From IMG/VR virus record IMGVR_UViG_3300033273_000075, positions 1-24,386 of that record: DNA of 24,386 nucleotides; one strand, 5' to 3'. Under the pieces are notes generated by a model. It had not been told where the DNA came from and ran no database searches. It saw only the letters and a program-made list of their open reading frames with translations. Source of the DNA: a virus. The stretch's first letter is position 1, and each line of letters opens with the position of its first letter. The position numbers were made by a program, and so were the translations under genes. Of this stretch, positions 3,947-24,386 are shown piece by piece.

Positions 3947-4711
3947 TTATGTGAATGCCCCGACTTCACCGCCATCTGTTGCCGAACCAGAATTATAGAC
4001 AGTAAAATTACCAGCCGACCCCAAATTGTCCCCGAGATTAGAAACGCCAGCGGTATGATCCATTTTGAGATATACCAACGGTTGTGAACCAGTTACGTTT
4101 GAACCATCATCCCCTAAATCAACAGGCTTGTTGTCGCTGTCATAAAACTTAGCGCGATTTGATGCTTGGCTGAGATCAATATAACTATCATCAATAAACA
4201 GTTCAGCCATTGATCCGTTATAATTGCTATAAACAGATGACCCGCCTATCCGCGTATCAATTCGACCTGTTGTCCATGGGATAGTTCCGCTTGTCTTACT
4301 TGGCCCCTGACTTACACCGTTCAAATAAACATAAGCAGAAGTTCCATTCCAACTTCCCACCCAATGATTCCATTGACCGTCATCAGTTGAATTGGTGTCA
4401 GTGCTTTTCGCCATAAGTATTGAGCCTGACCAAGTATTAAGATCAAAGCCTGTAGCTTCAGACGAATTTTGCTGTAAATAAAAAGCTGGGTAAGCCCCAT
4501 ATTGACCATTCATTGCTTGGTGAACTAATGCGCCGCCGTTTGATGAACTATCCTTTTTAAACCAAAGGGACATTGTGAAATTGCCGCCATCAGCCCGTAA
4601 TGGTGTTGAGCGATCAAGGTAAGTGCTTCCATTTAAATCAACTCCGTTTGCAACATATGCACCACCCAGCGCACCCGCCGCACCTTGCATAACTAACTTA
4701 CTAGATGACAT
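3947..4711 (-). CDS. LamG/concanavalin A-like lectin domain tail protein
   Basis: This 254-aa protein probably binds host surface glycans. Residues 20-170 have the laminin-G/ConA-like jelly-roll pattern: YVANGVDLNGSTYLDRSTPL, then GGNFTMSLWFKKDSS, then GQWNHWVGSWNG and SAYVYLNGVSQGP. The later FYDSDNKPVDLGDDGS..GSQPLVYLKMD stretch (about 188-218) is a pattern I associate with this lectin domain in marine phage tail proteins. Base use looks more A/T-rich than in the neighbouring genes, hinting at recent exchange. It lies 3 nt from the Mtd-like fibre gene and is followed by a fibre chaperone gene. Confidence 0.75.
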   Translation of the reverse strand: MSSSKLVMQGAAGALGGAYVANGVDLNGSTYLDRSTPLRADGGNFTMSLWFKKDSSSNGGALVHQAMNGQYGAYPAFYLQQNSSEATGFDLNTWSGSILMAKSTDTNSTDDGQWNHWVGSWNGTSAYVYLNGVSQGPSKTSGTIPWTTGRIDTRIGGSSVYSNYNGSMAELFIDDSYIDLSQASNRAKFYDSDNKPVDLGDDGSNVTGSQPLVYLKMDHTAGVSNLGDNLGSAGNFTVYNSGSATDGGEVGAFT

Positions 4712-21001: not shown

Positions 21002-21422
21002 TAAGCGCGTCCTGAATGTTTATTTCAATTAATTCCTTGGCTTCCTTCACGTTTGCACTTGCGTGAACTTCCGCCGCTATCTTTGATGGAATAGCTAATA
21101 GTTTGGTTTTCGCTTTAAATAACTGCGTTTCAAACTCTTTGGCTACCTTTTCGATATACACCAAATCACCACGTTCAATGGCGTTTTCCATTTCCTTGGC
21201 GTCTGCCTGTTCTTTGGCTAATCTGGCCCTTTCCGCACCTAATTCAAGATTGTTGTTGTTATTGCCGGCAAGATTGCGGATGTGCTTCAGATATTGCAAA
21301 CGGACTTCATCAATGTCGTATTTGCCGCGATCCTGTTTATTTATAACGGATTGACGGATCAATGTCTGCAAAACCTTTGCATTAATCCCAAGATGATCTG
21401 CGCACGCTTCCAAACTAGCCAT
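20964..21422 (-). CDS. Terminase small subunit, Nu1-like
   Basis: This 152-aa protein begins MASLEACADHLGINAKVLQT. An N-terminal helix-turn-helix (3-30, ADHLGINAKVLQTLIRQSVI) is followed by KYDIDEVRLQYLKHIRNLAG and a charged helical part with RARLAKEQADAKEMENAIER. The end is a helical domain. This layout matches the Nu1-like terminase small subunits (phage DNA packaging protein family), which bind the packaging site and recruit the large subunit. The ATG at 21422 is used, as the codon before it is TTG. The gene overlaps the methyltransferase by 8 nt and the large subunit by 38 nt. Confidence 0.82.
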   Translation of the reverse strand: MASLEACADHLGINAKVLQTLIRQSVINKQDRGKYDIDEVRLQYLKHIRNLAGNNNNNLELGAERARLAKEQADAKEMENAIERGDLVYIEKVAKEFETQLFKAKTKLLAIPSKIAAEVHASANVKEAKELIEINIQDALSELVGYGRQTTD

Positions 21423-22119
21423 CAAATAACGCCCCTTGTGTCATTTGTTCATTGGTATCATTCGACCCACAAAACAAATCTTTTTGCTTACTTTGCTGAT
21501 ATACCCTTTCACATGCCACCTCAAAATAATCAGGATCGCGCTCAATTCCCGTACCTGATAAACCTAACTTTTCACATGCCACCAAAGTTGTGCCACTGCC
21601 CATGAATGGATCAAGAACCGTTCGCGCCTTTTCTGGCAAATGTCCTATGCACCATTCCATCACGCCAAGCGGTTTTTGTGTCGGATGTAGCCTTACATCA
21701 CTCCCTTTGCGGATCATCCCATTCCACAACCAATGAACACGTCGCACCGCTTTGCCCAGATTTGTCCATGCCATTTCACAATCCGCAAAATCATTATTAC
21801 CGTTTTGCTTGTCCCATATTAACCAGCACGGAGTCGGTGGCAAATCGTAATAATTACCACCAAATATGATCTGGGATTTACTAATCCCGCGTGCAAAATC
21901 TATGTGTTCATCACATGTTGTTTGATCCCATTCATCATTTTTATAATCGCCAACTTTTGCCAGCTTACCGCGTGACTTGTTCTTTTTGCCACCTTCGCCA
22001 ATTCCATAGGGTGGATCAGTTACCAACGCATCGAATTGCGATAAAATAGGCATGACTGACAAACAATCGCCAAGGATCAAACGCTGATTGCCAATTATTC
22101 TTTCCTTTATGATAGCCAT
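21415..22119 (-). CDS. DNA methyltransferase, beta-class adenine/cytosine-N type
   Basis: This 234-aa enzyme transfers a methyl group from S-adenosylmethionine to DNA. The catalytic motif DPPY is at 35-38, before the SAM-binding motif DPFMGSGTT at 170-178, so the motif order is that of beta-class N6-adenine or N4-cytosine methyltransferases. HPTQKP (145-150) is the usual motif just before the SAM-binding region. The stretch 45-140 should hold the target recognition part. No restriction endonuclease gene is adjacent, so it is probably an orphan enzyme that protects phage DNA from host restriction. The recognition sequence cannot be read from the protein. It overlaps the preceding small gene by 13 nt and the terminase small subunit by 8 nt. 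Confidence 0.9.
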   Translation of the reverse strand: MAIIKERIIGNQRLILGDCLSVMPILSQFDALVTDPPYGIGEGGKKNKSRGKLAKVGDYKNDEWDQTTCDEHIDFARGISKSQIIFGGNYYDLPPTPCWLIWDKQNGNNDFADCEMAWTNLGKAVRRVHWLWNGMIRKGSDVRLHPTQKPLGVMEWCIGHLPEKARTVLDPFMGSGTTLVACEKLGLSGTGIERDPDYFEVACERVYQQSKQKDLFCGSNDTNEQMTQGALFDG

Positions 22120-23285: not shown

Positions 23286-23456
23286 TCACGATTTGTCATC
23301 ATTTCCCACATTTTCTTTTAATGCCTTTGCCATCTGCAAAATCATATGCGGAAATTCTTTTTGTGGAATGGTAGCTATTAATTCACCACCATCCCATATT
23401 TTTAACTTCTGCTCATGCGAATACACATGCCAATTATATCGCTTCTTGCAGTTCAT
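23286..23456 (-). CDS. 56-aa hypothetical protein
   Basis: This frame begins MNCKKRYNWHVYSHEQKLKI, continues WDGGELIATIPQKEFPHMIL and ends QMAKALKENVGNDDKS. Secondary structure looks like two or three beta strands and a C-terminal helix, as in a folded small protein. The ATG at 23456 lies inside the end of the upstream gene (overlap 23 nt), with GAGG close upstream, so it is translated by coupling. It is below usual length cutoffs. Function unknown. Confidence 0.6.
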   Translation of the reverse strand: MNCKKRYNWHVYSHEQKLKIWDGGELIATIPQKEFPHMILQMAKALKENVGNDDKS

Positions 23457-23931
23457 TGACCTCTAGCCTTAATGCGATCTGCTTTATACTTTCTACATCT
23501 ATATTCGCATTAAGTATAGCCACTTCAAATCTGCGGCAAAATGCATAAAGCGCACTAGCGGCCTCATTACGAAACTCAGCCATCATTTCTGCATCTTCAG
23601 GATCAAAGTGAACATAGCCACCGCCTTGGCTTCGTTTTGATACGGGTGATATTTGCAGTGGCTTTTCAACGACCTTGATATTCAACAATGATGTGTCAAT
23701 TTTCTTAACCTCATATCGAACCTTGAAGCTGCCAAAATTCTGCCTGAATATCTGTCGCCGCGCTTCGTGCGCTAGTGTCGCATCATCCTTTTGAAAGAAT
23801 ACTTTGTGCGTCGGATGATCCGGCTTTTCTTTTACCCAAGCAATAAAGTCATCAGCATTGATGATATTGTTTCCCGTTTCATTGCTGAAATCTTCTAATG
23901 CTTGCTTCTTGATTTCTTTAGTTAGTCTCAT
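23434..23931 (-). CDS. Conserved hypothetical phage protein, 165 aa
   Basis: This protein begins MRLTKEIKKQALEDFSNETG. The region DHPTHKVFFQKDDATLAHEA then RRQIFRQNF, and later RSQGGGYVHFDPEDAEMMAE, is a pattern (HP.H..F..DD..AAHE.R..QAR.F; GGGY..F.P.D) I recognise from hypothetical proteins of alphaproteobacterial phages and prophages; no function is known. The start is the ATG at 23931, which has AAGGAG about eight bases upstream. The frame stays open for 57 codons upstream, but those read through the GGNNN array and are not protein-like. Its leader therefore contains the repeat array, which may control this gene. Confidence 0.75.
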   Translation of the reverse strand: MRLTKEIKKQALEDFSNETGNNIINADDFIAWVKEKPDHPTHKVFFQKDDATLAHEARRQIFRQNFGSFKVRYEVKKIDTSLLNIKVVEKPLQISPVSKRSQGGGYVHFDPEDAEMMAEFRNEAASALYAFCRRFEVAILNANIDVESIKQIALRLEVNELQEAI

Positions 23932-23950
23932 TTTTATACTCCTTAAATTT

Positions 23951-24250
23951 GACCGCCTTGCCGGACCGAACCATAACCCAACATAACGAACCAGTCCCTG
24001 ACCGCCTAACCGTACCACGCCGCGCCGTGCCGTACCAATCCGTACCTCGCCTCGCCAAACCTCGACCGCCCTGAGATACCAAACCATAACCCAACACAAC
24101 AAACCAATCCATGACCGCCTAACCGTACCACGCCGCGCCGTGCCGTACCAATCCTCACCTGGCCTCGCCTAACCTCGACCGCCCCGCCAGGCCGTGCCCT
24201 GCCTAGCCCGACCTTACCTCGCTCCGTCCGACCACACCTTCCCTTGACCG
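23951..24250 (-). repeat. GGNNN pentamer array inside a 113-bp tandem super-repeat
   Basis: On the plus strand CC recurs every 5 bases (on the transcribed-sense minus strand, GG every 5). Perfect registers run from 24005 to 24061 (12 in a row), 24118 to 24174 (12 in a row) and 24182 to 24218 (8 in a row). The heptamer GACCGCC starts at 23951, 24000, 24064, 24113, 24177 and 24246. Segments around 23951-24063 and 24064-24176 are copies with a constant offset of 113 bp, including 43 identical bases (23999-24041 and 24112-24154). A partial third copy begins at 24177. The array fills the non-coding stretch before the gene starting at 23931. A period of five is not codon-compatible, so it is not a protein repeat. 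Confidence 0.85.
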
Positions 24251-24255
24251 CCTTG

Positions 24256-24289
24256 GGAATGGGGCAACCGTAGCTGCCCCAACCATTCC
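24256..24289 (-). terminator. Strong intergenic hairpin upstream of the GGNNN array
   Basis: On either strand GGGGCA pairs with TGCCCC around an eight-base loop. Outer arms GGAAT and ATTCC extend the structure after a small asymmetric bulge. It lies directly at the stop of the partial gene at the right edge. There is no U-run, so it may be a processing or stabilising element, not a standard intrinsic terminator. Its inner arms are identical to those of the hairpin at 14430-14451. Confidence 0.5.
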
Positions 24290-24386
24290 TATGCTGCACG
24301 CTTAACACGTTCCTCTTGCAACATTTCATAAAGTTCCGCTGTTTCAGCGTCGGCCATTTCAGGAACTTCCATGGCGTGCGTTTGCA
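24289..24386 (-). CDS. C-terminal end of an unidentified gene (partial)
   Basis: The last 31 codons are visible and end with KRAA and a TAG at 24289-24291. They read QTHAMEVPEMADAETAELYE and then MLQEERVKRAA, a helical, acidic then basic tail. The gene most likely begins beyond the window. A 27-aa version from the ATG at 24372 is possible but has no visible ribosome site. No function can be assigned. Confidence 0.5.
   Translation of the reverse strand, partial: QTHAMEVPEMADAETAELYEMLQEERVKRAA

What the first reader, a model, noticed from the sequence alone, without database searches (positions are those of the whole stretch)
23951..24250. Five-base GGNNN array with 113-bp higher-order repeat in a 5' leader
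For about 300 bases the sense strand carries GG every 5 nt with variable NNN, in unbroken runs of 12, 12 and 8 registers, with phase jumps only at GACCGCC boundaries. Copies repeat every 113 bp. The spacing is conserved while NNN varies, which points to selection on GG spacing and not only to recent duplication. In RNA, GG-NNN-GG-NNN-GG-NNN-GG is a ready two-tier G-quadruplex, and the G-rich transcript would favour R-loops. A 5-nt period also recalls proteins that read regularly spaced short RNA motifs (for example TRAP, which reads (G/U)AG repeats). It could be an attenuator for the gene at 23434-23931, a packaging or replication site (it lies about 2.5 kb before the terminase genes), or a decoy for an RNA-binding protein.
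Basis: partly seen in the sequence, partly recalled or inferred. Interest (0 to 1): 0.85.

Follow-up and report, generated by a model that had tools for sequence, protein, structure and literature searches.

The report
VIPR guide-RNA array in marine phage
The odd five-base repeat is a set of guide-RNA genes of VIPR, a CRISPR-like system that phages use against rival phages and that was first reported in a 2026 preprint; this is a new example, in a phage related to those of marine Roseobacter, and its targets are still unknown.

Summary
The array is real. It is best explained not as a G-quadruplex leader, attenuator or packaging site but as a VIPR guide-RNA (vrRNA) array (PMC13142463, preprint 2026). 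Read on the minus strand it is five blocks of YNNGG pentamers (13, 12, 9, 12, 9 units) separated by a four-base CGGT. Its two 113-bp copies differ at the NN guide positions (12/42) and hardly at the scaffold (2/71; P = 1e-4).

It lies between the 3' end of a vipr gene, cut by the contig edge, and a vap-like gene (165 aa). Of 80 viral contigs with a related Vipr, 53 carry the same GGCGGTC separators; block spacing is 5n+4 in 253 of 305 cases. A modelled Vipr of this subtype matches CRISPR Csm3/Cas7 RAMP subunits (Z about 10), and Vipr profiles hit the deposited SUSP1 Vipr chain.

The phage is a CRP-822-type roseophage. Two close relatives lack the cassette: homology stops near window position 23,360. 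By homology, Vipr coats the RNA and the NN letters select a DNA target with a one-base skip. No target was found for these five guides. Verdict: new member of a known, very recently described kind.

The parts
24289..24384 (-). 3' end of a vipr gene (last 31 codons and stop), cut by the contig end
   Evidence: QTHAMEVPEMADAETAELYEMLQEERVKRAA matches the C-termini of full-length Viprs over all 31 residues, 52-68%, best E 1.9e-7
24260..24281 (-). leader RNA hairpin, 9 bp, closed by a C(UACG)G tetraloop, between vipr stop and first separator
   Evidence: RNA fold; GC hairpins with UUCG or GNRA loops at the same place in L134, L136, L152, L155
24247..24250 (-). first CGGT separator
   Evidence: parse of the array
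24182..24246 (-). guide block A, 13 units; NN = AA AA GT CG GG GA AA CG TA AG AC CT GG; two units have an imperfect GG
24118..24177 (-). guide block B, 12 units; NN = GA TA GA CA GA TT AC AC GC GT AC TA
24069..24113 (-). guide block C, 9 units, some with GT for GG; NN = AT TT TT GT GG AT TT AT AG
   Evidence: GT is common at this position in the subtype
24005..24064 (-). guide block D, 12 units; NN = GA TT GA GA AC TT AC AC GC GT AC TA; differs from B only at NN
23956..24000 (-). guide block E, 9 units; NN = AG CT TC AT GG AT TC CC AA
23952..23955 (-). last CGGT separator, just before the ribosome-binding site AAGGAG (23939-23944)
23434..23931 (-). vap-like accessory gene, 165 aa, mostly helical in the model
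   Evidence: 39% identity, E 1e-29 to the gene near vipr in L134 and similar hits in more than 20 loci; model pLDDT 86.7
23286..23432 (-). small conserved phage gene next to the cassette (relative of CRP406_1); marks the edge of the cassette. Start codon not determined

Best explanation
The 300-bp array is the guide-RNA (vrRNA) locus of a VIPR system carried as a cassette by a CRP-822-type roseophage. Shown here: a cut vipr gene, five blocks of YNNGG pentamers (GT tolerated for GG) separated by CGGT, and a vap-like gene form one unit on the minus strand; the same protein families and separator recur in many other phages; relatives of this phage lack the unit. Inferred from homology to the SUSP1 and P. 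fulva VIPRs: the array is transcribed from the minus strand, Vipr subunits bind one pentamer each by holding GGY, the exposed NN pairs jointly find a double-stranded DNA target read as NNxNNxNN, and binding represses genes of competing phages or satellites. Inferred and untested: CGGT marks the boundary of each guide and the vap protein assists.
For: Pentamer array with constrained scaffold and variable NN. The dominant gene family beside such arrays in 68 viral contigs matches phrog_4652 in 57 of 57 aligned members and its profile hits PDB 36pp_D, SUSP1 Vipr protein, E 5.7e-41. The published vrRNA is 9-16 YNNGG repeats with hypervariable NN. Window vipr C-terminus E 1.9e-7 and vap E 1e-29 to loci with a full vipr. 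Same GGCGGTC separators in 53 of 80 such loci; spacing 5n+4 in 253 of 305. Modelled Vipr of the subtype matches Csm3/Cas7, E 1.1e-5 and Z 10.0. Cassette absent from L224 and CRP-406.
Against: Only the last 31 residues of the window's own vipr lie in the contig, outside the RAMP core. No target was found for any guide, and guides of the held loci show no excess of matches at skip 1 over shuffled guides. No separate structured 3' tail follows each block, unlike SUSP1 vrRNAs. Transcription was not tested; no sigma-70-type promoter was found on the minus strand.
Confidence: 0.93

Rival explanations
1. A VIPR array that has lost function: a relic whose guides are decaying in this phage.
For: Block A has two imperfect GG units, C has one (TATCT); no target found.
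Against: GT for GG is normal in the subtype (14% of units); differences between copies fall on NN and not on the scaffold, the reverse of decay; the vap gene is intact with a ribosome-binding site.
Confidence: 0.05
2. A cis element of the 165-aa gene: attenuator, G-quadruplex or R-loop leader.
For: It ends just before the ribosome-binding site; the RNA is G-rich.
Against: In L113, L115 and L118 the array follows the vap gene; GT units break a two-tier quadruplex; folding is only slightly better than shuffled (z -1.3); the 5n+4 rule and free NN have no role in it.
Confidence: 0.02
3. A packaging or replication site (iterons, cos or pac).
For: It lies within 5 kb of the terminase genes.
Against: L224 with 99% identical large terminase and CRP-406 with 85.5% show no such array; L224 shares sequence up to 23369 only.
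Confidence: 0.01
4. Assembly artefact or recent simple tandem duplication.
For: Contig-edge location and a 113-bp duplication.
Against: Many independent contigs and sequenced isolates (Donkeykong, UmaThurman) carry the same kind of array; the copies differ non-randomly.
Confidence: 0.01

Closest known systems
VIPR (Viral Interference Programmable Repeat) systems, PMC13142463, bioRxiv 2026.04.26.720920
   Same: Phage-borne; Vipr RAMP protein, accessory gene, guide RNAs of 9-16 YNNGG repeats with hypervariable NN.
   Different: Blocks are joined by a four-base CGGT and have no individual structured tail; GT is accepted for GG; blocks of 6-18 units. The preprint mentions staggered arrays with overlapping vrRNAs, which may be this format; its supplement could not be read.
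CRISPR-Cas class 1 effectors (Csm3 / Cas7 RAMP filaments)
   Same: Fold of the protein and the idea of a subunit repeating along a guide RNA.
   Different: No identical repeats around unique spacers; a five-base guide period instead of six (six from general knowledge and the preprint); no cas genes found among the ORFs tested.
TRAP-type RNA binding
   Same: A protein reading regularly spaced short RNA motifs (general knowledge).
   Different: TRAP attenuates in cis; here the variable letters carry the information and the protein family is unrelated.

Membership tests
VIPR | Guide RNA region of 9-16 tandem YNNGG units | tested here: met
   Blocks of 13, 12, 9, 12, 9 units on the sense strand
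VIPR | GGY conserved, NN hypervariable | tested here: met
   12 of 42 NN against 2 of 71 other differences between copies, P 1e-4; 173 blocks of the subtype
VIPR | vipr gene beside the array | tested here: met
   31-residue C-terminus matches Viprs of L145, L134 and others, E 1.9e-7
VIPR | RAMP core (RRM, G-loop) in the window's own Vipr | tested here: inconclusive
   That part lies beyond the contig end; present in relatives by model and profile
VIPR | Accessory (vap) gene in the locus | tested here: met
   165-aa gene has homologues beside vipr; assignment to vap1-6 not possible without the supplement
VIPR | Structured invariant 3' tail on each vrRNA (SUSP1 clade) | tested here: inconclusive
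   Blocks are separated by CGGT only; the preprint states that array architectures vary between types
VIPR | Targets read with a one-nucleotide skip | tested here: inconclusive
   No target found; no excess at skip 1
VIPR | vrRNA transcribed and bound by Vipr | not testable with these tools
   Needs RNA sequencing and pull-down
CRISPR-Cas | Identical repeats separating unique spacers, with cas genes | tested here: not met
   No such repeats in the array; no cas families among the ORFs scanned

The most novel reading that the evidence does not exclude
CGGT-separated arrays are an unpublished VIPR guide format: one transcript carries many guides without individual structured tails, the four-base CGGT unit itself serves as boundary, handle or processing mark, and GT is accepted for GG. 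Guide repertoires grow by tandem duplication of block pairs followed by change confined to NN.
Probability: 0.3. Interest if true: 0.55.

Novelty: new member of a known kind. Interest (0 to 1): 0.48.

Why it matters
It places a VIPR system in a family of marine roseophages with isolated members, as a cassette that is present or absent between close relatives. It gives a sequence rule (5n+4 spacing, GGCGGTC separators) that finds and parses this kind of array, and evidence that guide letters change while the scaffold is kept. It also shows that isolated mycobacteriophages and Gordonia phages carry arrays and vipr relatives annotated as hypothetical proteins, which gives material for bench tests.

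Tried and rejected
Target search. Guides were written as NNxNNx patterns. A degenerate B/D pattern and guide E gave no hit in viral contigs. An 18-base B/D core gave none in viral contigs and two hits in the 84,980 genomes, fewer than the roughly seven I estimated for chance; the better one (22 of 24) lies in a large protein of a bacterial MAG with no phage link. A 16-base core of A gave 16 hits that do not extend. Guide C was only compared with held loci.

Guides B/D read in codon phase as [DE]Y[DE][HQ][DE][FL]TTAVTY. The head-tail joining gene of CRP-821 and CRP-831 has LDV(E/D)DFATAVTY with 18 of 24 guide letters, but shuffled guides reach 16-18 in the same set, so I do not claim it. Testing 396 guides at skips 0-3 on held loci showed no excess of skip 1 over shuffled guides.

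Fold search of the vap model gave no significant PDB match. A single-sequence search of Vipr L134 against PDB was weak; only profiles reach 36pp. A viral scan with the window vap alone found no relatives; they came through the Vipr query. Relatives cannot be drawn for a virus record, so Roseobacter host genomes were not searched for targets with mismatches.

Full report
What is there. The window is a whole IMG/VR record of 24,386 bp. It carries one array, on the minus strand, between the stop codon of a gene cut by the contig end (24289) and the start of a 165-aa gene (23931). CC-phase runs of 4 or more units occur only here, and 2000 shuffles of the region never reach the observed run of 12. 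In the sense direction the array parses completely: A (13 units), CGGT, B (12), CGGT, C (9), CGGT, D (12), CGGT, E (9), CGGT. The 113-bp period is B+CGGT+C+CGGT. The two 113-bp copies differ at 12 of 42 NN positions and 2 of 71 other positions (P = 1e-4).

How common it is. Across their arrays the unit is CC-NN-R with free NN. Clustering the open reading frames around the arrays gave one dominant family in 68 loci on the GG strand and a second family in 19 loci that includes the window's 165-aa gene. All 57 aligned members of the first match phrog_4652, of unknown function, and its profile hits PDB 36pp_D, named SUSP1 Vipr protein, at E 5.7e-41.

Identification. A full-text search found the preprint PMC13142463. 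It describes VIPR: a phage-borne RAMP protein (Vipr), an accessory gene (vap) and guide RNAs of 9-16 YNNGG repeats, in which the NN pairs read double-stranded DNA with one skipped base between pairs. In the two clades analysed there, natural targets are mostly satellites and prophages that compete with the carrier, and the complex represses transcription. The anatomy seen here fits that description. No other paper in the library was found to describe it.

The window's own subtype. A query with a longer Vipr (L113) brought 80 relatives. The visible C-terminus of the window's cut gene matches theirs over all 31 residues (52-68%, best E 1.9e-7), and the 165-aa protein matches a gene close to vipr in more than 20 of them (39%, E 1e-29 to L134). 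Fifty-three of the 80 carry at least two GGCGGTCNNGG separators, and 68 carry these or YNNGG runs. The distance between neighbouring separators is 5n+4 in 253 of 305 cases. In 173 distinct blocks position 4 is G in 98% and position 5 is G in 82% or T in 14%, while positions 2 and 3 are free. So the CGGT unit and the tolerance of GT are properties of the subtype, not damage in this phage. A Vipr of the subtype modelled from 26 homologues (pLDDT 85.6) has CRISPR RAMP subunits as its nearest folds, Csm3 of type III-A and Cas7 of type VII (Foldseek E 1.1e-5; Z 10.0, rmsd 3.0 over 138 residues). Its profile hits 36pp_D at E 9.6e-5 and the first Vipr profile at E 1.8e-32.

Leader. Between vipr stop and the first separator the window has a 9-bp hairpin closed by C(UACG)G. 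L134 and L136 have GC hairpins with UUCG loops, and L152 and L155 with GNRA loops, at the same place and with different stems. This points to a conserved RNA hairpin ahead of the array. Six sequences are too few for a covariation claim, and its role is unknown.

The phage. The large terminase is 85.5% identical to that of Roseobacter phage CRP-406 and 74-75% to CRP-811, -821, -822, -823 and -831, the CRP-822-type family of PMC12629253, almost all of which lack an integrase gene. The four of these genomes examined carry no such array. L224, with 99% identical terminase, and CRP-406 share sequence with the window up to positions 23369 and 23357 and then differ; in L224 a primase/helicase-like gene lies a short way beyond. 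So vipr, array and vap appear as a cassette gained or lost within this family, beside a small conserved gene.

How it most likely works. By homology: transcription of the minus strand, assembly of Vipr subunits along the RNA at one pentamer each, display of the NN letters, binding of a DNA site NNxNNx..., and repression. Of these steps only the anatomy, the protein family and the selective pattern are shown here. I found no target for guides A-E in what I could scan. That leaves open whether the targets are absent from the databases or the rule differs in this subtype.

Verdict. Observation confirmed, mechanism re-assigned. It is a new member of a kind reported in 2026, of interest mainly for the separator rule, the evidence on guide change and the marine carrier.

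Noticed in passing
L304 (Mycobacterium phage Donkeykong NC_051648.1, about 36891-37210) and L305 (Gordonia phage UmaThurman NC_031249.1, about 33356-33650): Isolated phages carry YNNGG arrays beside vipr relatives; the arrays are annotated as protein genes (Donkeykong gp48, UmaThurman gp40) and the vipr relatives as hypothetical proteins. 25 Mycobacterium and 5 Gordonia phage records match the Vipr query.
   Followed up: partly
L015:2650-2900 and 4000-4380: Array blocks separated by hairpin spacers with a shared loop (CCGTAATTTCAGA-like) and different stems; may correspond to one of the other array formats named in the preprint.
   Followed up: no
window 21415-22119 (-): A 234-aa DNA methyltransferase ORF matches only part of longer phage methyltransferase families (for example phrog_67 positions 120-361 of 743), so it may be a short form or a fragment.
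   Followed up: no
L192:7337 guide against L022:4916: One guide of the same subtype matches 19 of 20 letters with a one-base skip in another phage contig (per-guide E 3e-4, about 0.1 after testing 396 guides).
   Followed up: no
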